A stretch of 64,000 nt of DNA from Roseateles sp. DAIF2 (GTDB lineage Bacteria > Pseudomonadota > Gammaproteobacteria > Burkholderiales > Burkholderiaceae_C), in assembly GCF_015624425.1 (NCBI RefSeq), contig NZ_CP049919.1, positions 5,022,001 through 5,086,000 of the forward strand, written 5' to 3'. Below the pieces are notes generated by a model. The model made no database searches. It was not told where the DNA came from and saw only the letters and a program-made list of their open reading frames with translations. Shown one piece after another: positions 33,366 through 41,312 of the stretch. Every line of letters begins with the position of its first letter. Within the stretch, counting starts at the first letter, position 1. The position numbers were made by a program, and so were the translations under genes.

Positions 33366-33683
33366 TCATGGCGACGCTATGCGTCGGATGAGCTGCAGGT
33401 TTTCTTCGGACAGGCCGGCAAGTTCCACCTCCGAGATGCGCCCCTCGCGGAGCAGCCGGCCAAAGACGACGTGAAGCTGCGAGTATCGGTAGTCGTACTT
33501 GCTGTCGATCTCACGCCGCGCCTTGGACAGGTACTCTTCCGTGGACCACATATGCCCCGGCTCGGTCGCGTTTGCCGCCATTGCCTTAAAGTGCAGCAGG
33601 ACTTCGGCGAGTTCGCACTGAAGTGCGGCATCAAAGACGCGACGGGCGATCTTTTTCTCCGAAGAGCTCCATTCACTCGTCAT
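33366..33683 (-). CDS. Cassette 7: fluorescence-recovery-protein-like (FRP-like)
   Basis: The 105-residue helical protein matches cyanobacterial fluorescence recovery protein along its length: an opening SEWSSSEKKIARRVFDAAL, then MWSTEEYLSKARREID (about 45-60), KYDYRYSQLHVVFGRLLREG (about 62-81) and LAGLSEENLQLI. FRP dimers detach orange carotenoid protein from phycobilisomes; Trp46 and Arg56 align with its key Trp50 and Arg60, while His53/Asp54 are Glu/Glu. FRP-like proteins exist in non-photosynthetic bacteria with other, mostly unknown roles. ATG 33683 has AGGAGA upstream and sits 17 bases after the attC core. Family call by recall, not by search. Confidence 0.75.
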   Translation of the reverse strand: MTSEWSSSEKKIARRVFDAALQCELAEVLLHFKAMAANATEPGHMWSTEEYLSKARREIDSKYDYRYSQLHVVFGRLLREGRISEVELAGLSEENLQLIRRIASP

Positions 33684-33700
33684 GCCGATCTCCTGGCGCG

Positions 33701-33770
33701 ACCCAACGTTGGCGTTCAGCCGACCGGGCCAGCGCAGCTGGCCAGGGTCGGCTGCAACGACGGGTTGGGC
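33701..33770 (-). other. attC6 (70 bp)
   Basis: Core-like ends ACCCAAC (33701-33707) and GTTGGGC (33764-33770) bound an imperfect dyad with arms TTCAGCCGACC and GGTCGGCTGCAA and inner GGGCCAGC / GCTGGCC. Separates cassettes 6 and 7. Confidence 0.85.
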
Positions 33771-33773
33771 ATT

Positions 33774-34091
33774 TCATACCGCGCGGCAGAGCATTAGCGT
33801 CCACCAATAGGCCACGAAACCACCGGCGCATGTGGCAAGAGTGGCAACAATGAAGTTACCCCAAGCCTGACTCGATCTCTTTTGAATTGCATTGGCGAAG
33901 ATCAGGCAAGTTGCGATGAATGCAATTCCGAGGCCCGCCAGGCTAATTGCCAAGCCAGATTGGCTGCAAGGTGCATAGGCGGTAGTTGTTGTGATGCCAG
34001 CGCCGACTACCAGCGCAGCTGCCCAATAGAGGCGCGGAATGAGCGCTCGCAAAGTTTGGTCCGCCGCAGATTTCAACTTTGAGCTGCCCAA
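33774..34091 (-). CDS. Cassette 6: small three-TM membrane protein
   Basis: The frame gives 105 residues with three hydrophobic segments (about 20-40, 46-68, 78-100) and a basic N-terminus. No family is recognised. The first codon is TTG lying in the attC5 core (GTTGGGC on the minus strand); no ATG exists before the membrane segments, so the true start may be this TTG or a later TTG/ATT codon. TGA lies three bases from the attC6 core, typical of a cassette gene. Confidence 0.65.
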   Translation of the reverse strand: MGSSKLKSAADQTLRALIPRLYWAAALVVGAGITTTTAYAPCSQSGLAISLAGLGIAFIATCLIFANAIQKRSSQAWGNFIVATLATCAGGFVAYWWTLMLCRAV

Positions 34092-34142
34092 CGTTTGCGC
34101 TCAGCGGGCGGCGAAGCCGTCCGCTGCAGCAAAGGGTTATGC
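34086..34142 (-). other. attC5 (57 bp)
   Basis: Ends GCCCAAC (34086-34092) and GTTATGC (34136-34142) with arms TCAGCGG / CCGCTG and GCGGC-GAA-GCCG. Very similar in plan to attC1. Separates cassettes 5 and 6. Confidence 0.88.
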
Positions 34143-34155
34143 GCGGAGGCTGCGG

Positions 34156-34470
34156 TCAAAACTTGTTCCCTTTCAAACGCGGCCGAGCGCCCTGCAAGAA
34201 CTTTCGGAACACTACGATCGCGATGAGGATGCCCAAGATCGCGCCATAGATCAGCCCATATTCAAGCGCTGCGGCGAGTTGCTCACTCACGGTTGGCGAA
34301 TAGCTCTTGCCGAGAAGCTTGCCCCCAATGCATGACGCGGATGCCAGATCGTATGTCGCCATGTAGCCAGCGCAAACATCGGTCCCTCCAAGCCACCAAG
34401 CGCCTACGACGAAAGCAAGGAGGCTGCACGCGGCCAGCCCATAGATGCGCGCGGACCTATTAGTCTTCAT
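34156..34470 (-). CDS. Cassette 5: small two-TM membrane protein
   Basis: The 104-residue protein has hydrophobic segments at about 8-28 and 68-92 with a polar loop containing two Cys (VCAGY, SCIGG) likely facing the periplasm, and a basic C-terminus (RPRLKGNKF). I do not recognise a family. ATG 34470 is three bases from the GCAT remnant of attC4, and TGA 34156-34158 is 14 bases before attC5. The core before it is broken by the IS1111-type element, so transcription from the attI side may be blocked or supplied by the IS. Confidence 0.75.
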   Translation of the reverse strand: MKTNRSARIYGLAACSLLAFVVGAWWLGGTDVCAGYMATYDLASASCIGGKLLGKSYSPTVSEQLAAALEYGLIYGAILGILIAIVVFRKFLQGARPRLKGNKF

Positions 34471-34614
34471 GAGGCATAGACAAGATGGCATCGCGAACTC
34501 GGGCGGCCCGACTCCTGCGATGCCGTAGGTTGCGAGCGCGGGGCCCGTAGAGCTACACCAAGGCACTCGGCAGACGGGCTGCCGGGGCGTTGCAAGTTAG
34601 CGAGGAGTCGGGCC

Positions 34615-35769
34615 ATGGAGCGCAAATCTAGCACCCTGTTCGTCGGTTTGGACGTCCACAAGGACAGTATCGACATCGCCGTGGCGGATGCACCGCGCGA
34701 TGCTGAGATTCGGCATGTCGCCAGCATCAAGGGCGACCTCGCTTCGCTGGACAAGGCGCTGCGTCGACTCATCAGCCAGGGCCAGGTCTTGCACATCGTC
34801 TACGAGGCTGGTCCCTGCGGCTTCGTCATCTGGCGCCACCTCAGCGCTCAGGGCCTGCACTGCGAGGTGGTAGCCCCTTCGTCGATTCCGCGCGCCCCTG
34901 CAGACCGGATCAAGACCGACCGGCGCGACGCCATGTTGCTGGCCCGTCTAGCCCGCTCAGGCGACCTGGCCGTGGTGCGCGTTCCCGATGGAGTGGACGA
35001 AGCCGTGCGCGACTTGGTACGCGCTCGCGAGGATGCCGTGCGCGAGCAGCGCAACGGGCGCCACCGCCTGAAGGCCTTGCTGCTGCGCAATGGCATCCCC
35101 TACACGGGCAAGACCTCCTGGACCGCCGCCCACCTGCGCTGGCTGTCCACCGTCAAACTCGCACATGCGGCTCAGCAGATCGCCTTCCAGGAGTACCTGC
35201 ATGCGATCACCGAGGCTAGCGCACGCATCGCCCGGCTGGAGCAGGCCCTGCGGGAGGCGCTGCCCGACTGGCACCTGTTGCCCGTCGTGCAGGCCCTACA
35301 GGCCTTGCGAGGCGTGCAGCTGATTGCCGCCATCACGCTGGTCGCCGAACTGCAGGACTTCCTGCGCTTCGAGTCCCCGCGCCAGCTGATGGCCTACCTG
35401 GGCCTTGTGCCCAGCGAACGCAGCTCCGGCCCCAAGCGCCGCCAGGGCGCCATCACCAAGGCCGGCAACTCAGCTGCGCGGCGCATGCTCGTCGAGGTGG
35501 CTTGGCACTACCGGGCCGATCCCCGCGTGAGCCCCGTCATCGCCACGCGCCAGGACGGGTTACCGCCCGCCGTGACCGATATCGCCTGGAAGGCGCAGCT
35601 GCGGCTGAGCGCCAAGTTCAAGCGCCTGTGCGCGCGCCGCCTGCTCAAGACCAAGGCGGTGGTGGCGGTGGCGCGCGAGTTGGCTGGCTTCGTCTGGGCC
35701 ATCGGGCGCGAGGTGCAGCTCTCGGGCTGGCAGGGCGTCAAACCCAGTGCAGGCGCCACGGCGCATTGA
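34615..35769 (+). CDS. IS110-family (IS1111 group) DEDD transposase/recombinase
   Basis: The 384-residue protein has an N-terminal RuvC-like domain with the four acidic residues (GLDVHKDS, VYEAGPCGF, KTDRRDAMLLARL with two Asp) and a C-terminal Transposase_20-type domain with GVQLIAAITLVAEL and the conserved Ser in TKAGNSAARR. IS110 enzymes recombine with guidance by an element-encoded bridge RNA. ATG 34615 follows AGGAG. It is intact and runs opposite to the cassettes. Long downstream non-coding sequence supports the IS1111 subgroup. Confidence 0.92.
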   Translation: MERKSSTLFVGLDVHKDSIDIAVADAPRDAEIRHVASIKGDLASLDKALRRLISQGQVLHIVYEAGPCGFVIWRHLSAQGLHCEVVAPSSIPRAPADRIKTDRRDAMLLARLARSGDLAVVRVPDGVDEAVRDLVRAREDAVREQRNGRHRLKALLLRNGIPYTGKTSWTAAHLRWLSTVKLAHAAQQIAFQEYLHAITEASARIARLEQALREALPDWHLLPVVQALQALRGVQLIAAITLVAELQDFLRFESPRQLMAYLGLVPSERSSGPKRRQGAITKAGNSAARRMLVEVAWHYRADPRVSPVIATRQDGLPPAVTDIAWKAQLRLSAKFKRLCARRLLKTKAVVAVARELAGFVWAIGREVQLSGWQGVKPSAGATAH

Positions 35770-36123
35770 GTCACGCAGTCCACACCGGCATCAACGCGAG
35801 CAAGGAGGTGCGCGCATCCACAGATCGACCAACGGCCGGATCGGGAACGCGGCGCAGCCGCGGCCATCAAGGGAATCCTCGGCAACGTTATTGAGCGCCA
35901 TGCGCAAGCAGCTCGCGACCTCAGCCCCTAGACCGAAGGCAGCCCTGCGACGAACACTTGTCTTGAGGTAGCCAACCCTCGCATATCAGCATGAGCAACC
36001 GTCGCGCATCCATACCGGATGGCACCAACAGGCTCCGCCGCGTTCCCCGTCTGGCCAGAGGGCCATTCTTCAGCTGCAGCGCAGAGGGGCAGGTCTTGCC
36101 GCTTGACAGGAAGATGCCATATC
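35770..36123 (+). ncRNA. Candidate bridge-RNA region of the IS1111-type element
   Basis: The 354 bases between the transposase stop and the first right end carry no convincing gene. In the IS1111 group the bridge RNA is encoded in the right non-coding end, so this is where it is expected. The stretch AACGTTATTGAGC (35884-35896) shares CGTTAT with the complement of the target core, a possible but unproven guide match. Ends of the RNA are not determined. Confidence 0.35.
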
Positions 36124-36306
36124 AGCCCTGCGACGAACACTTGTCTTGAGGTAGCCAACCCTCGCATATCAGCATGAGCAACCGTCGCGCATCCATACCG
36201 GATGGCACCAACAGGCTCCGCCGCGTTCCCCGTCTGGCCAGAGGGCCATTCTTCAGCTGCAGCGCAGAGGGGCAGGTCTTGCCGCTTGACAGGAAGATGC
36301 CATATC
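35941..36306 (+). repeat. 183-bp exact tandem duplication of the IS right end
   Basis: Bases 35941-36123 and 36124-36306 are identical by eye and abut directly. Each ends in GATGCCATATC, the IS terminus. No attC sequence lies between them. Confidence 0.95.
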
Positions 36307-36364
36307 AACGCCTGAGTTAAGCCGCCACCACGAAGTGGTGGTCGGCTTGAATGAATTGTTAGGC
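36307..36364 (-). other. attC4, main part (left core split off by IS1111-type element)
   Basis: The site runs AACGCCTGAGTTAAGCC, a CCACCAC-GAA-GTGGTGG tip, then CGGCTTGAATGAATTGTTAGGC (shown in parts). With GCAT (34474-34477) from the other side of the IS it is 62 bp. The outer parts are nearly the same as the attC of aadA cassettes from class 1 integrons. Separates cassettes 4 and 5. Confidence 0.88.
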
Positions 36365-36646
36365 CCCGTCCGACACGACGAGGCTCTCACCGACAACATC
36401 AAGCTGCTGCAAGAAGTCGGCATCATCTGGGTCTTCAAGTGCCACCGTAAGAGCGACAAGCTCGCCCCCATCTTGCCGCAGAGCCTCAACCCCCTCTACA
36501 GGCATTTCCATTTCGAGGCCCTCGCTGATCGCAATTCGGATCTTCATGCCGGGGCGCACGTCGCCTTGGACGACCTGGCCGGCGAAGACGTAGAGCGAGC
36601 GAGCGCTAAGCACGAAGGACTGGTGAACTCTGAAGGTCGCCGACAT
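36359..36646 (-). CDS. Cassette 4: small beta-rich protein, EF-Tu domain-2-like pattern
   Basis: The 95-residue protein is predicted mostly beta. The segment VFAGQVVQGDVRPGMKIRI (about 20-38) resembles the barrel repeat of translation-factor domain 2, and the rest alternates hydrophobic and acidic residues. No catalytic motif is visible. ATG 36646 lies four bases from the attC3 core and TAA overlaps the attC4 core, so the gene fills its cassette. Function unknown. Confidence 0.75.
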   Translation of the reverse strand: MSATFRVHQSFVLSARSLYVFAGQVVQGDVRPGMKIRIAISEGLEMEMPVEGVEALRQDGGELVALTVALEDPDDADFLQQLDVVGESLVVSDGA

Positions 36647-36650
36647 AGGG

Positions 36651-36719
36651 GCCTAACGTTGAAGCTGAGCCGCGAGCGGCGGCTTGCCGACGCGAGTCGG
36701 CTCGAGCGACTGGTTAGGC
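36651..36719 (-). other. attC3 (69 bp)
   Basis: Ends GCCTAAC (36651-36657) and GTTAGGC (36713-36719) are perfect inverted cores. Inside are AGCCG / CGGCT arms and a GCCGACGCGAGTCGGC hairpin. Separates cassettes 3 and 4. Confidence 0.88.
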
Positions 36720-36725
36720 TTCACT

Positions 36726-37079
36726 TTACTCATAGGTAACCGCGACTCCACCAACTAGCGCCTCTTGCTTAAGCACCTTCTGACCTTGAACTCCAGAGAT
36801 AGAGAGCCTGGAATCTGACTGCCATTGAATCCTCAGTGGCACCGTGCCATTTGCAATGAAGGTGTTTCCGCCCTCGTTCGGAAGCTCCGCATTGGCTTGA
36901 ACGATCGATAGCTGAGTATTGAACCCGGTTGTTGCTCCGCAGTCTCGACTAAAAACAACGACCTTGAGCTTGCCGCTAGGCGAGACGATGCTTGAGGAAG
37001 AGTCGTTGCCGCACAGGTCGCTGCAACCAGCGAGCACCGTGAAGGAAATTCCCGCGAGTAGGAGAACGGTCTTGCTCAT
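36726..37079 (-). CDS. Cassette 3: small lipoprotein
   Basis: The 117-residue precursor has a lipoprotein signal (MSKTVLLLAGISFTVLAGC, lipid on Cys19) and a mature beta-rich domain with three more Cys (SDLCGN, RDCGATTGF). The segment ending SPSGKLKVVVFSRDCGATTGF recurs in many small proteobacterial lipoproteins of unknown role. ATG 37079 is 14 bases from the GCCTAAC remnant of attC2, and TAA is seven bases from attC3. Loss of its upstream attC to the IS1182 element may isolate it from the cassette promoter. Confidence 0.82.
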   Translation of the reverse strand: MSKTVLLLAGISFTVLAGCSDLCGNDSSSSIVSPSGKLKVVVFSRDCGATTGFNTQLSIVQANAELPNEGGNTFIANGTVPLRIQWQSDSRLSISGVQGQKVLKQEALVGGVAVTYE

Positions 37080-37099
37080 ACTGTCTTGTGAAGCCTAAC

Positions 37100-38901
37100 G
37101 AAGCTGTCCAATAACCCTCTGCCCACGCGTCATGGACTTTGACGAGCGGAACGGGAGCTGGTTCAGCAGAGTTTTCATTCCGGATGATTGTGGCGCCAAC
37201 TGCGGGCGCCTGTGAGCGCTGCCGAACCCTGCTGATGGGGGATATCACGGCCCTGGCTGTGGCCCTCACCGCCTCCAGCCGCTGTGCGCCAACTTCTCGA
37301 TGTTGTGCACCAGGCAGAACAACTGCCACTGTGCCCCCACCTTGGCCGCGCCGCGCAGCGTGAAGCGGCTCAGCCGCTTGTTGTGCCGCAGGTTGGCGAA
37401 CACCGGCTCCACCGTGGCGATGCGCCGGCTGTACAACGCTCGCCCCTGCGGGCTGTCGATGGCCCGGCGCATGCGCTGACTCGGATCGTTCGGGTCGAGC
37501 TCTCTGGCGTGGAACAGCGAGACCTTGCGTGCAGCTGTGCGTTCGGGGTGGCGCAGGCACTGGGTGCGCAGCGCGCAGCCTTGGCAATCCTCGGGCCTGG
37601 CCTTGAAGTCTTCGCGCCGCTGGCCCTTGCCCACCTGGTAGATCGCCCCGCTGCTGCGCAGCGTCTGGCCGGCCGGGCAGATCGCCGTCCTGGCCTTTGG
37701 ATCAAATCGGAAGTCGCTCGGCCCGAAGTGCTTGATCGATGGTTTGCCCTGCCCGGTGGCCTGCTTGTCGTAGAGCGGGTCGGGCTGGGCTTTGTGCTGA
37801 GCGTGGTCCTTGAAGCGTTCATCGCGCTGGCGCATCTGCGTGTCGGCAATCAGCGCGGGCCTGCCTTGCGCGTGCAGGGCCTGCACGTTGACATCGCTGT
37901 GGTAGCCAGCGTCTGCCGTGACGAGTGTCTGCGCGTCAGCGAAGGGCCGTGCCTGCTCCACCATGGGCAGCAGCATGGCCTGCTCCGAGCCGGAGCCAGT
38001 GATGTCCGCCGCGATGATGACCTGGTGCCGCGCGTCCACCGCGGCCTGGGCCGCATAGCCCTGGATCACGCCCTTGCTGGTGGCCATCTTGGCGCTGTCA
38101 GGATCGGTGATGTTGGTCTTGAGCTCCTGGCCCTTGCGGTTACGCCGCGGCGTCGTGGTGCGCAGGAACTCTCGCGTGCGCTGGGCCTCGCGGCGCAGGG
38201 CGTCCACACGCTGCTGGCGGCGCGCCTGCAGTGCTTCATCGCCGGGCGTCCCGGTGCGGCTGTCCTGCGCCTGGTGCAGGCTCACGATCTTCTCGGCCGC
38301 CTTCTCCAGCCGGCGCGCCCGGTGGAGCAATTCCGCATGCGTGCCGCTGCGCTCCTTGCTGGCGTTGGCCGGCAGCTTCACGCCGTCGATGGCGAACAGC
38401 TCTCGACCGATCAAGCCCTGCGCATCGCAGGTCAGCAGCACCTGATGGAACAGCGCCTTGATCTGCGGCCCCAGGCCGCTGACGAATTTGGCCAGTTGCG
38501 CATGGCTGGGGTGGCTGTCCCCGCTGATCGCGATGAACTGGATGTCATGCTCGCAGGCCCGCTCCAGTTGCCGGCTCGACACCAGGCCGCGGCTGTAGCC
38601 CAGCAGCACGATCTTGAGCAGCACGCGCGGGTCGTAGGCGCTGGCGCCCACCTCTTCGTTGCGAAAGCGCGCGTCCAGCGCCGAGAGGTCCAGCTCCTCA
38701 TCCACCAGCAGGTTCAGCGCAAAGGCAAAGCTGCCCGGCACCAGCTGCTCCGACAGCACCACCGGCAGGAACATCGCACCTCGGACCTGAGGCTTGTAGC
38801 GCGGCATCCGTGGCCTCCTCTGACTCGGCCTCGATTGCAGCGCCCGGCGCCTGACCGCGCTATTCGGAGACTCCCGCACCGGGGAGATTTTTTACAGCCT
38901 C
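37100..38901 (-). mobile_element. IS1182-family insertion sequence in attC2
   Basis: Ends GAAGCTGTCCAATAACCC (37100, plus strand) and GAGGCTGTAAAAAATCTCCC (38901, minus strand) are imperfect inverted repeats. AAC is present on both sides (37097-37099, 38902-38904), a 3-bp target duplication (4 bp AACG if the end is one base shorter). Excision in silico restores GCCTAACGTTCGC, a perfect attC start. Contains one intact transposase gene. Confidence 0.8.
37266..38807 (-). CDS. IS1182-family DDE transposase
   Basis: The 513-residue transposase has an N-terminal DUF772-type segment (YDPRVLLKIVLLGYSRGLVSSRQLE), and DDE residues in FAIDGVKLP, LVTADAGYHS and IATVEPVFANLRHNK; a Cys cluster (CQGCALRTQC) precedes the last. 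This is the IS1182 layout. ATG 38807 follows AGGAGG. All motifs are intact, so the element may be active. Confidence 0.93.
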   Translation of the reverse strand: MPRYKPQVRGAMFLPVVLSEQLVPGSFAFALNLLVDEELDLSALDARFRNEEVGASAYDPRVLLKIVLLGYSRGLVSSRQLERACEHDIQFIAISGDSHPSHAQLAKFVSGLGPQIKALFHQVLLTCDAQGLIGRELFAIDGVKLPANASKERSGTHAELLHRARRLEKAAEKIVSLHQAQDSRTGTPGDEALQARRQQRVDALRREAQRTREFLRTTTPRRNRKGQELKTNITDPDSAKMATSKGVIQGYAAQAAVDARHQVIIAADITGSGSEQAMLLPMVEQARPFADAQTLVTADAGYHSDVNVQALHAQGRPALIADTQMRQRDERFKDHAQHKAQPDPLYDKQATGQGKPSIKHFGPSDFRFDPKARTAICPAGQTLRSSGAIYQVGKGQRREDFKARPEDCQGCALRTQCLRHPERTAARKVSLFHARELDPNDPSQRMRRAIDSPQGRALYSRRIATVEPVFANLRHNKRLSRFTLRGAAKVGAQWQLFCLVHNIEKLAHSGWRR

Positions 38902-38966
38902 AACGTTCGCGGTAAGCGGACCAGCCAGCGTAGCTGGCGCAGGTCCGCTTGACCAAAGGGTTATGC
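38902..38966 (-). other. attC2, main part (left core at 37093-37099 beyond IS1182)
   Basis: After AACGTTCGCGG come arms AAGCGGACC / GGTCCGCTT and an inner GCCAGC-GTA-GCTGGC hairpin, ending in GTTATGC (38960-38966). Joined to GCCTAAC at 37093-37099 the site is 69 bp. Separates cassettes 2 and 3. Confidence 0.85.
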
Positions 38967-39242
38967 ATCTGGCGCCGTGCCCTTCAGGATCCCGAAAGCA
39001 ACGTCCCCCTCTGGCGCAAAGCAGACCAACTGTCCCTGGTGGTCGTCAATGAACAGCCTTGCACATGCGTGGCACTGGTACATGACCCGCTCAACTATGC
39101 GAAGTGCGTTCCACGGGGACTCACCGGATTCAATTTGCTCAAGCGCAGACTCGTAGGTTTCATCTGGGAGTAGATAAGCCTTGTTGTCTTGATAGTCGGT
39201 GTTGTCGCGAATGACTTCACCACAGCTGCAGCTGAACTTCAT
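38961..39242 (-). CDS. Cassette 2: small CxC/CxxC (zinc-ribbon-like) protein
   Basis: The 93-residue protein has CSCGE near the N-terminus (about 5-9) and YQCHACARLFID near residue 55-65, a pattern that suggests a zinc ribbon. The rest is acidic. No known family is recognised. TAA overlaps the attC2 core GTTATGC, and ATG 39242 is 18 bases from the attC1 core. GC content is near 52%, below the chromosome. Function unknown. Confidence 0.78.
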   Translation of the reverse strand: MKFSCSCGEVIRDNTDYQDNKAYLLPDETYESALEQIESGESPWNALRIVERVMYQCHACARLFIDDHQGQLVCFAPEGDVAFGILKGTAPDA

Positions 39243-39260
39243 CGGTGGGTCTTGGAAGAT

Positions 39261-39317
39261 GCATAACGTTGGAATTCAGCGGCGCCGTAAGGCGTCCGCT
39301 GGAATGACTGGTTATGC
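39261..39317 (-). other. attC1 (57 bp)
   Basis: Perfect inverted cores GCATAAC (39261-39267) and GTTATGC (39311-39317), with arms TTCAGCGG / CCGCTGGAA and inner CGCC-GTAA-GGCG. Separates cassettes 1 and 2. Confidence 0.9.
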
Positions 39318-40028
39318 GTCACGAGCCGATTCCAGGGCTTCGATTGCAAGCCCGTAAGTACGGAACACCATGTCAGCATTTTCAATGTCAGCAAGTTCCG
39401 ACTTAGATGCATGCGCTAGCTGGTTACGGATCTTCCGCAGCATATGAATCTCGCCTTGCCAGCCTTGGGGAAGCAGGAAGTCCACCTTCTGCAAAATCGT
39501 TAGCAGAGGCATACGCTCAGCTGCAGCGAGGCCCTTACGGATGGCAAAAGAGCGCACTGCTTGCTCGAATGCAACGCCAGCCTGTAGTAGTGCAGCCAGC
39601 TTGTGACCCGAGCGGAACACGCCATCAGCTTCGGCCATCAGTTGTTGGCTAAAACTCGTTCCATACGCAATTGGAGCGCTAGCTGGTAACGACGCATGTC
39701 GCGATGAACCAAGATCTGTGACAAGTGACTTCAAACTTTGAATGTCACTGCTCAGGCCAGACAGAGCCTCCTTGTCGGATGACTTCTTGCGCTCCCGTTC
39801 ATACATGGCAACGAGCCACATGATGAAGAAAAGCGCAGGAGCGCAGAGCTTGAGGTACGCGGCCAACGAGAAGGGTTTCCCCGAGAAGTGCCAATCGAGC
39901 AGTCCATACACCGCGGCAATTGCCGACGGGTATTTGAGTTGATGCAGGACCTTCTTGACGAACGGCCAAGCCTCGGAGACCTGACTCTTTAGACTTTCAA
40001 ACAACGGCATCTCTCTCATTTGACGCAT
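39312..40028 (-). CDS. Cassette 1: membrane-anchored HEPN-domain protein
   Basis: The 238-residue protein has two hydrophobic segments (about 33-48 and 58-76), a charged linker (78-110) and a C-terminal helical domain (about 140-235) with RNQLAH at 201-206. This R-N-x3-H motif is the catalytic signature of HEPN ribonucleases, and the fold context (LLQAGVAFEQAVRSFAIRKG) fits DUF4145/HEPN-like proteins. HEPN proteins act as toxins or in phage defence; no antitoxin gene is visible in its cassette. As first cassette it is closest to the array promoter. ATG 40028 lies inside the attI core; 40019 and 40010 are alternatives. Confidence 0.8.
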   Translation of the reverse strand: MRQMREMPLFESLKSQVSEAWPFVKKVLHQLKYPSAIAAVYGLLDWHFSGKPFSLAAYLKLCAPALFFIMWLVAMYERERKKSSDKEALSGLSSDIQSLKSLVTDLGSSRHASLPASAPIAYGTSFSQQLMAEADGVFRSGHKLAALLQAGVAFEQAVRSFAIRKGLAAAERMPLLTILQKVDFLLPQGWQGEIHMLRKIRNQLAHASKSELADIENADMVFRTYGLAIEALESARDA

Positions 40029-40134
40029 AACGTGATATGGGGCGACAGGCGCTGCGCCCTAACGTCGGTGCGGCCGCATAACGTCGGGCACGGGCGTGCC
40101 CCTAAGTGCTTGATGCAAAACGCCTCCCTTGCAT
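40025..40134 (-). other. attI region
   Basis: GCATAAC at 40025-40031 joins attI to cassette 1. Two further core-like motifs follow toward intI, CCCTAAC (40057-40063) and GCATAAC (40076-40082), each trailed by GTCGG. An inverted pair GGGCACG / CGTGCCC lies at 40086-40101. Exact attI limits are not set. Confidence 0.7.
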
Positions 40135-40163
40135 TTGACTGTACATTCATACAGCACTAAATT
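40135..40163 (+). promoter_or_regulatory. intI promoter
   Basis: TTGACT (40135-40140) and TAAATT (40158-40163) are separated by 17 bases, a near-consensus sigma-70 promoter about 64 bases before the intI ATG. Confidence 0.75.
40139..40154 (+). promoter_or_regulatory. LexA box in the intI promoter
   Basis: CTGT-ACATTCAT-ACAG matches the CTGT-N8-ACAG LexA consensus and sits between the -35 and -10 boxes, predicting SOS induction of the integrase. Confidence 0.85.
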
Positions 40164-40226
40164 TACCTACAAATCCGGCAGCTTGTTACATCAGCCTTGG
40201 TTGTCGCCGGAGTGCAGGAGGGCCGT

Positions 40227-41312
40227 ATGTTGCCATCAGTTCCGGGGCCCGTGCCAGCGCGTAGCTTCCTGCGTCCGCCCGCCGCTTCGGGCACCACCGT
40301 CAACCTGCCACCGCTGCAGGCCGTCAGGTTGCTTGACCAACTGCGCGAGCGCATTCGCTATCTGCACTACAGCCGCCGCACCGAGGACAGCTATGTGTTC
40401 TGGTGCCGCGCCTTCATTCGCTGGCATGGCGTGCGCCACCCAGCCGAGATGGGCGGGCCGGAGGTCGAGGCCTTCCTGTCCTACCTGGCTGCCGAGCGAG
40501 GGCTGGCGCCATCCACCCACAAGCAGGCGCTGTCGGCCCTGCTCTTTCTCTATGGCAAGGTGCTGGGCATCAACCTGCCCTGGATGCAGGAGATCGGTCG
40601 GCCCCGTGCCTTGCGGCGGCTGCCCGTGGTGCTGTCGGTCGAAGAGGTGAGCCAGTTGCTGGCGCAGATGCCGCCGGGTGACCATCGCCTGCTGGCACGC
40701 CTGCTCTACGGCACGGGCCTGCGCATCAGCGAGGCCTTGCAACTGCGGGTCAAGGACCTGGACTTTGGCCAGCGCGCCCTCATCGTGCGGGCCGGCAAGG
40801 GCGGCAAGGACCGGGTGGTGATGCTGCCGCAGGCTCTGCATGCAGAGCTGCGCGAGCAACTGGCCGGGGCTCGCCGCATCTGGGCGGCCGATGTCGAGGC
40901 AGGCCAGGCCGGCGTGGAGATGCCGTATGCGCTGGAGCGCAAATACCCCCGGGCCGGCAGCGCCTGGACCTGGTTCTGGGTCTTCCCGCAAGACCACCTC
41001 TCCACCGATCCGCGCAGCGGCGTCATCCGCCGTCACCACCTCTACGACCAGAGCTTCCAGCGCGCCTTCAAGCGGGCCCTGTCGGCCGCGGGCATTGCCA
41101 GGCCCGCCACACCCCACACCTTGCGCCATTGCTTCGCCACCCATCTGCTGCAAAGCGGCAGCGACATCCGCACCGTGCAGGAACTGCTGGGGCATGCGGA
41201 CGTGGCCACCACCATGATCTACACCCATGTGCTCAAGATGGGCGGCGGCGCCGTGCGCAGCCCGCTGGATGTGCTGCCGGCCTCGCCTGCGCTGATGGGC
41301 TCACCGGGCTGA
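40227..41312 (+). CDS. intI: Integron integrase IntI
   Basis: The 361-residue tyrosine recombinase has an N-terminal SAM-like domain (about 30-120) and a catalytic domain with Arg165 (GTGLRISEA), Lys191 (GKGGKDR), His297/Arg300 (HTLRHCF), His323 (LLGHADV) and Tyr332 (IYTHV). The IntI-specific insertion is present at about 220-255 ([22 protein letters not shown]). The end [10 protein letters not shown] is typical. ATG 40227 follows AGGAGG at six bases. It should recombine attC with attI. It reads away from the cassettes. Confidence 0.96.

What the first reader, a model, noticed from the sequence alone, without database searches (positions are those of the whole stretch)
33366..41312. Chromosomal integron with seven cassettes of mostly unknown function
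An IntI with the integron-specific extra domain, an attI region and six attC sites flank seven small minus-strand genes. The arrangement (integrase divergent from an array whose genes all read away from attI) is canonical. The cassettes carry no known resistance gene. Two IS elements sit in attC sites. The layout is read directly from core motifs (GTTATGC, GTTAGGC, GTTGGGC) and dyads.
Basis: partly seen in the sequence, partly recalled or inferred. Interest (0 to 1): 0.85.

Follow-up and report, generated by a model that had tools for sequence, protein, structure and literature searches.

The report
Integron invaded by attC-hunting insertion sequences
This is an ordinary, complete chromosomal integron (a bacterial gene-collecting device), but one of the two jumping elements in it belongs to a widespread lineage that appears to jump almost only into the recombination sites of integrons, a habit I did not find described for that family.

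Summary
A covariance model trained only on attC sites from other genomes finds 6 of 6 attC sites (E 1e-14 to 2e-7; next best hit 0.68). IntI scores 456 bits (cut-off 265), carries the IntI-specific insert and groups with IntI against Xer. It is better described as six cassettes with attC plus a terminal FRP-like gene with no attC behind it. As an integron it is ordinary.

The surprise is the second insertion sequence. The IS110 element belongs to a known attC-targeting type. The IS1182 element is no chance visitor: all four copies in this genome sit in attC R' cores. Counting these and relatives down to about 34% identity, 34 of 36 left ends and 34 of 36 right ends abut GTT, the invariant part of the core. 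attC models match the junction in 28 of 35 testable elements (21 at E<=0.05). More distant IS1182 elements do not do this (0 of 8 with GTT flanks; no R2 hit in 25 loci). On a transposase tree the trait maps to one clade. I found no description of it, but key older papers and ISfinder were not read. Whether the transposase reads sequence, hairpin or IntI-bound site is open.

The parts
40227..41312 (+). intI, integron integrase (open frame from TTG 40197, likely ATG start 40227)
   Evidence: NF011946 527 bits, TIGR02249 456.5 bits; IntI-only insert and tree
40139..40154 (.). LexA box CTGT-N8-ACAG upstream of intI (SOS control, inferred)
   Evidence: exact CTGTACATTCATACAG, only such match in the window; the LexA consensus is recalled
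40025..40110 (-). putative attI, core GTTATGC at 40025-40031 with further core-like repeats at 40059 and 40076
   Evidence: sequence and position between intI and the first cassette; no functional test
39312..40028 (-). cassette 1 gene (start probably 40010, as in P0241, 232 aa); N-terminal membrane segment inferred, C-terminal part weakly like DUF4145
   Evidence: E 0.007, below cut-off; 43 proteins incl. itself, one named HEPN domain-containing
39261..39317 (-). attC 1
   Evidence: R1 E 8.3e-12
38961..39242 (-). cassette 2 gene, 93 aa, Cys-rich (CxC/CxxC)
   Evidence: no family over cut-off
38897..38966 (-). attC 2 up to its R' GTT, where IS1182 is inserted; the other half of the core lies at 37093-37099
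   Evidence: R1 E 2.3e-7
37100..38901 (-). IS1182-family insertion sequence, 1802 bp, flanked by GTT (AAC on +) on both sides
   Evidence: transposase NF033551 307.6 bits, cut-off 270; ends and copies
37266..38807 (-). IS1182 transposase, 513 aa
36726..37079 (-). cassette 3 gene, small lipoprotein (LAGC lipobox)
36651..36719 (-). attC 3
   Evidence: R1 E 1.2e-14
36359..36646 (-). cassette 4 gene, 95 aa, unknown
36304..36364 (-). attC 4, interrupted at R' by the IS110-family element
   Evidence: R1 E 1.1e-7
34477..36305 (+). IS110-family (IS1111-attC type) element, transposase 34615-35769; outer ends approximate
   Evidence: NF033542 255 bits, cut-off 140; flanks
35940..36305 (+). perfect tandem duplication (2 x 183 bp) of the right-end noncoding region of the IS110 element
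   Evidence: copies identical
34156..34470 (-). cassette 5 gene, 104 aa, membrane protein-like
34086..34142 (-). attC 5
   Evidence: R1 E 1.1e-8
33774..34091 (-). cassette 6 gene, about 105 aa, start codon uncertain
33701..33770 (-). attC 6
   Evidence: R1 E 1.8e-8
33366..33683 (-). terminal cassette-like gene, FRP family; attC before it, none found behind
   Evidence: PF18032 57.4 bits; 492 proteins at E<=0.001

Best explanation
The locus is a sedentary chromosomal integron with an intact-looking IntI, a putative attI, six attC-bearing cassettes and one terminal cassette-like gene, sitting between two host genes that adjoin in a relative. It has been invaded by two unrelated insertion sequences that both use the attC R' core as target. 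One is an IS110/IS1111-attC type element (a known kind). The other belongs to a clade of IS1182-family elements specialised on integrons: its DDE transposase inserts the element at the GTT of the R' core (GTTRRRY), duplicating GTT (3 bp), nearly always with the transposase reading in the cassette-gene direction. The insertion keeps the attC body on one side and the next cassette's core on the other. Shown: position, target duplication, orientation, clade restriction, recent copies. Inferred: that the transposase itself selects the site, and that both recombination half-sites may stay usable.
For: Four of four copies of the IS in the 6.01 Mb genome are in attC cores, while an attC model lists only 16 sites in that genome at E<=1. 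The three full copies are identical or differ by 1 base and have different attC bodies and different next cassettes, so they moved by transposition. Of 41 elements at >=34% identity with at least one end found (the four own copies included), the left flank is GTT in 34 of 36 and the right flank in 34 of 36; the rest are AAC (L064, inserted in reverse) and ATT. One search adds L110 (GTT at both ends) and L111, L122, L126 (right GTT); one search adds two Pseudoalteromonas replicons. IR up to 14/14. An attC model hit abuts the junction, at the R' end, in 28 of 35 elements with flank, 21 of them at E<=0.05. Controls: <34% elements 0 of 8 with GTT; no R2 hit in 25 control loci. Tree: the 27 GTT-core rows lie in one branch, SH-aLRT 100.
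Against: Seven of 35 junctions gave no attC model hit (L068, L073, L085, L092, L095, L096, L110); L068 and L073 have GTT on both sides but a left flank that does not look like attC. Seven of the 28 hits are weak (best E 0.12 to 2.7), notable only because they fall exactly at the junction. A simpler fold test did not discriminate well: 16 of 32 elements pass, 0 of 24 controls, but also 12 of 34 GTTRRRY sites of the window, only five of them attC. R1 gave two weak hits in control-side loci (L119 E 0.21, L129 E 1.1), neither at the IS junction. The tree is a quick one with a warning about long branches. No transposition was observed; all evidence is from genome sequences, many of them drafts.
Confidence: 0.85

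Rival explanations
1. The IS1182 element does not choose attC; IntI does. A circular form of the IS with a GTT at its junction is captured by IntI at attC like a cassette, which would also leave GTT on both sides.
For: The duplicated triplet equals the invariant part of the IntI core; the best-supported reading is a 3-bp duplication, whereas several distant IS1182 elements show 4-bp ones (L101, L102, L103, L106, L107, L108, whose scoring favoured 4-bp duplications).
Against: The element ends at its terminal inverted repeats wherever both ends were found. The trait is confined to one transposase clade. The IS itself carries no attC model hit between its ends in the window.
Confidence: 0.1
2. 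Hitchhiking: the IS inserted into one attC long ago and was spread by cassette movement, so today's copies merely look targeted.
For: Insertion at a core makes the IS a part of the following cassette, which could move as one unit.
Against: Nearly identical copies in one genome have different next cassettes and different attC bodies; the flanks printed for relatives also differ from each other (by eye); one element is inverted (L064).
Confidence: 0.04
3. Survivorship: the IS inserts widely, but only copies in integrons persist because insertion there is harmless.
For: Integron arrays are tolerant regions (general knowledge).
Against: Insertions are at one exact triplet and one end (R') of the site, not spread over arrays; distant IS1182 elements persist elsewhere.
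Confidence: 0.03
4. The whole observation is simply a chromosomal integron with ordinary IS insertions.
For: The integron features tested are standard, and attC-targeting by IS110/IS1111 elements is published (passages of PMC11187229, PMC11089894, PMC12444791).
Against: Does not explain the clade-wide attC specificity of the IS1182 element.
Confidence: 0.1

Closest known systems
Sedentary chromosomal integron
   Same: IntI with its specific insert, divergent from an array of attC cassettes; LexA box; mostly unknown cassette genes
   Different: Nothing essential; small (six attC), and absent or partial at the same locus in the four relatives looked at
IS1111-attC group (IS110 family; [quoted passage not shown]
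   Same: Insertion sequence that targets attC; the IS110 element here looks like a member
   Different: The IS1182 element has an unrelated DDE transposase, terminal inverted repeats and a GTT duplication, and no known guide RNA
IS1182 family, e.g. IS1272 and TnSha1 (passages of PMC5678879, PMC4923244)
   Same: Same transposase family; members target palindromes and hairpins, and attC is a hairpin-forming site
   Different: IS1272 deletes part of its hairpin, leaves no target duplication and has no sequence preference; this clade keeps the attC, duplicates GTT and uses attC cores
IS1202 family, ISAjo2 type (abstract and one passage of PMC10132070)
   Same: DDE insertion sequence targeting a tyrosine-recombinase site (dif/pdif), same orientation
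   Different: Different family; [quoted passage not shown]
Group IIC-attC introns (Quiroga et al. 2008, seen as a reference in PMC7923331)
   Same: Mobile element that inserts at attC
   Different: Retroelement, not a DDE transposon

Membership tests
Chromosomal integron | IntI-type tyrosine recombinase with the IntI-specific insert | tested here: met
   TIGR02249 456.5 bits against cut-off 265; 29-column insert; tree against Xer
Chromosomal integron | attC sites behind the cassette genes | tested here: met
   6 of 6 by model R1 trained on other genomes and again by R2; the seventh gene has none
Chromosomal integron | attI and promoter Pc | tested here: inconclusive
   core-like repeats at the right place; attI function and Pc not tested
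Chromosomal integron | array on the chromosome, varying between relatives | tested here: met
   one 6.01 Mb contig. Same locus: truncated intI in G002, IS1182 remnant and attC-like piece in G001, an attC match in G009, and in G013 the two flanking genes adjoin within about 110 bp
IS1182 family | transposase model | tested here: met
   NF033551 307.6 bits, cut-off 270
IS1182 family | terminal inverted repeats | tested here: met
   10/14 in the (near-)identical copies L037 and L038, up to 14/14 in relatives
IS1272-like hairpin-replacing elements | no target duplication, hairpin partly deleted | tested here: not met
   GTT duplicated and attC body kept; the definition is from passages of PMC5678879 and PMC4923244
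IS1111-attC group (for the IS110 element) | IS110-family transposase inserted at an attC core | tested here: met
   NF033542 255 bits; attC 4 model hit ends at the IS
IS1111-attC group (for the IS110 element) | guide (seek/bridge) RNA matching attC | tested here: inconclusive
   exact-match search of the noncoding region against the attC-side flank found no shared stretch of 7 or more; the RNA was not modelled

The most novel reading that the evidence does not exclude
An old, abundant IS1182 clade lives on integrons: its transposase recognises the folded attC hairpin or the IntI-bound site, and because its first bases (GAGG) after the kept GTT imitate an R' box, neither attC nor the next cassette is broken, so the IS rides with the following cassette through integron recombination. 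Transposition and cassette shuffling would then be coupled in one element.
Probability: 0.25. Interest if true: 0.8.

Novelty: new variant of a known kind. Interest (0 to 1): 0.6.

Why it matters
If right, integron core sites are hunted by at least two unrelated IS lineages, one of the IS110/IS1111 kind shown elsewhere to be RNA-guided (PMC11187229, title, start of abstract and passages) and one using a plain DDE transposase, both at the R' core. It gives a second, apparently protein-only system for asking how a transposase recognises attC, makes IS1182 copies usable as markers of attC arrays and clusters without integrase, and bears on how arrays decay (G001 has an IS1182 remnant and an attC-like piece at the locus and no intI hit). 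Relatives of the transposase are very common in public data (7683 of 7999 scored candidates at E<=1e-60); their insertion sites were not examined there.

Tried and rejected
Rfam found nothing in the window at gathering thresholds. The whole IS in plasmids by DNA gave 1 record with a short match, and the transposase by protein gave 2 of 72,556 records at E<=1e-60, so I have no evidence of this IS in clinical class 1 integrons. My first core regex (GTTRRRY) missed the GTTATGC cores and was replaced. A fold-and-complementarity test of rebuilt empty sites was too weak and was dropped: 16 of 32 elements, 0 of 24 controls, but 12 of 34 window GTTRRRY sites pass. A position-weight matrix of 26 junctions (of 32 with both ends; own extra copies and unsuitable rows left out) holds about 15 bits, and the only two window positions at or above the median of true sites are both attC sites, so sequence recognition cannot be excluded and I do not claim structure recognition. 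Elements left out of counts: L087, L090, L097 (no ends found); L081 and L093 (attC side at a contig edge; wrongly placed L093 and printed 36 usable, 35 is right); L132 (same as L037). Automatic ends of L119, L120, L121 are doubtful; L120 was still among the controls. In the tree L068, L073, L087, L090 are labelled unclear inside the clade and L115, L119, L121, L128 outside it. In one search rows L011, L016, L017, L020 were wrong-frame ORFs (no recombinase motif); one search repeats the tree without them. Literature for IS1182 with attC: searches (capped listings, plus passages of the papers opened and an outline with abstract); nothing I saw there described it. Tetu and Holmes 2008 is not held; Post and Hall 2009, Siguier 2015 and ISfinder were not read, so novelty is provisional.
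Full report
What was claimed.

The integron is real. IntI (40227-41312 +) passes the curated cut-offs of NF011946 and TIGR02249, has a 29-column insert that the two Xer proteins of the same genome lack, and lies with 19 other IntI rows against Xer (the two outgroup proteins score 365 bits on XerD, over its cut-off, and 317 on XerC, just under). A LexA box, CTGTACATTCATACAG, stands at 40139-40154. I built an attC covariance model from 12 attC sites of other genomes; it finds six of six attC sites in the window with E 1.2e-14 to 2.3e-7, and the next hit has E 0.68. IntI is the only protein over the TIGR02249 cut-off in the 6.01 Mb single-contig genome, but attC model hits also lie at 148, 277-280, 959, 1387, 2624 and 2664-2670 kb (those at 278 and 959 kb have E 0.75 and 0.12 and may be chance), that is, away from the integrase. 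The locus varies between relatives: G002 (same genus) has a truncated intI beside the same downstream gene and an intact intI on another contig; G001 (same genus) has an IS1182 remnant and a short attC-like piece there and no intI hit; G009 has an attC match; in G013 the two flanking genes adjoin within about 110 bp.

Cassettes. No PADLOC model matched IntI or the seven genes. The terminal gene 33366-33683 is an FRP-family protein (PF18032, 57.4 bits, cut-off 26.6) with 492 proteins at E<=0.001. It starts just after an attC core, but no attC follows. PF18032 matched in 6 of 250 genomes of the order, own included. In one of them, G180, the FRP match also starts about 30 bp after an attC and again none follows; the loci of the four others showed no attC within the flanks held (L167, L168, L170, L172, the last below the family cut-off). 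So the array is six complete cassettes and one cassette-like gene. The first cassette gene resembles HEPN/DUF4145 proteins only weakly.

The IS110 element. It lies at the R' core of attC 4 and has an IS110-family transposase. attC targeting is known for the IS1111 group (passages of PMC11187229, PMC11089894, PMC12444791). It occurs once in the genome and carries a perfect 2 x 183-bp tandem duplication of its right-end noncoding region.

The IS1182 element. It is 1802 bp (37100-38901), with two further full copies in the genome differing by 0 and 1 base and a fourth, interrupted copy. Each of the four sits at an attC R' core, with a different attC body on one side and a different next cassette on the other, and an attC model hit abuts each. 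An attC model lists 16 sites in this genome at E<=1, so four of four is not chance.

Relatives. I collected elements from 399 genomes of the order by DNA (6 with a match at E<=1e-50), 369 of the class (36 at E<=1e-20) and 398 of the phylum (25 at E<=1e-25) by protein, own genome included each time, and 13 loci from the GTDB contig collection. Loci were fetched only for the best matches. Ends were located from inverted repeats or end motifs without requiring GTT. Of 41 elements at 34% identity or more with at least one end (four of them the own copies), the left flank is GTT in 34 of 36 and the right flank in 34 of 36; the exceptions are L064 (AAC on both sides, that is, inserted in reverse), L065 (left ATT) and L078 (right ATT). 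One search adds L110 (both ends) and L111, L122, L126 (right ends), all GTT. Two Pseudoalteromonas replicons, NZ_CP074588.1 and NZ_CP022523.1, agree: the first at both ends, the second at its right end. Elements under 34% with similar inverted repeats have other flanks (0 of 8 GTT), and none of the further distant elements shows GTT on both sides.

attC at the junction. With R1 or the broader model R2 (built from 50 R1 hits, none with an IS-like end), a model hit ends at the IS in 28 of 35 elements with enough flank, always at the R' end, and 27 of 28 in the same orientation. Twenty-one have E<=0.05; the other seven have best E 0.12 to 2.7. R2 finds nothing in 25 control loci; R1 gave two weak hits on the control side, L119 and L129, away from the IS junctions. 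Fourteen more distant host genomes that I tested each contain at least one attC-like site at E<=0.05.

One clade. On a quick tree of 59 transposases the 27 GTT-core rows fall into one branch of 31 rows (SH-aLRT 100) together with four rows of unclear ends and no row with another target; the program warns of long branches between the groups. The clade reaches from the window's own group (Roseateles, Pelomonas) through Comamonadaceae to other Gammaproteobacteria; two rows come from metagenome bins named Akkermansiaceae and Alphaproteobacteria, which may be binning errors. A protein search found 7683 of 7999 scored candidates at E<=1e-60. Named hits suggest that the host is a Paucibacter or Roseateles relative; this is inference.

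How it probably works. Shown: exact insertion at the R' GTT, 3-bp duplication, strong orientation bias, restriction to one clade, recent copies. Inferred: the transposase itself chooses the site. IS1182 relatives such as IS1272 are known to use hairpins (passages of PMC5678879 and PMC4923244), and attC folds into one, so specialisation of a hairpin-seeking ancestor is plausible. Unlike IS1272, this clade keeps the hairpin and makes a duplication. Sequence recognition is not excluded. After insertion the attC body is followed by GTT and the IS start GAGG, six of seven letters of GTTRRRY, while the next cassette keeps its own core, so the site may still work; this is untested. GAGG is also the start of several distant IS1182 elements, so it is probably not an adaptation to attC.

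Novelty. attC-targeting IS elements are known from the IS110/IS1111 group, and an IS1202-type DDE element targets dif sites (abstract of PMC10132070). In nine literature searches (listings and passages seen) I found no report of an IS1182-family element targeting attC; the key older papers and ISfinder were not read. I rate it a new variant of a known kind.

Noticed in passing
window 35940-36305: Perfect tandem duplication of the last 183 bp (right-end noncoding region) of the IS110-family element, the part that in IS1111 elements encodes the guide RNA.
   Followed up: partly
window 33366-33683 and L169 1501-1794: FRP-family (fluorescence recovery protein) gene just behind an attC in two genomes, without an attC after it; could be an array-end gene or a cassette with a lost attC.
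   Followed up: partly
L042 8564-15322 and L041 9258-9315 (own genome, 2.66 and 1.39 Mb): attC sites far from intI, these places carrying further IS1182 copies; one copy is itself interrupted, apparently by an IS3-like element (by eye).
   Followed up: partly
L179 1163-1884 and L043 90-1341 (G002, same genus): A truncated intI at the orthologous locus and an intact intI on another contig of the same genome.
   Followed up: partly
window 40025-40031: The core GTTATGC contains an in-frame ATG, so the first possible start of the first cassette gene may be an artefact; the likely start is 40010.
   Followed up: no
L064 1766-1827: The only clade member seen inserted in the opposite orientation, still at R'.
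   Followed up: partly
L066 (Roseateles asaccharophilus NZ_SNXE01000016.1): Dense cassette array (ten attC hits on one strand in 7 kb) with an IS1182 copy 89% identical in its transposase to the window's; a ready second system for tests.
   Followed up: no
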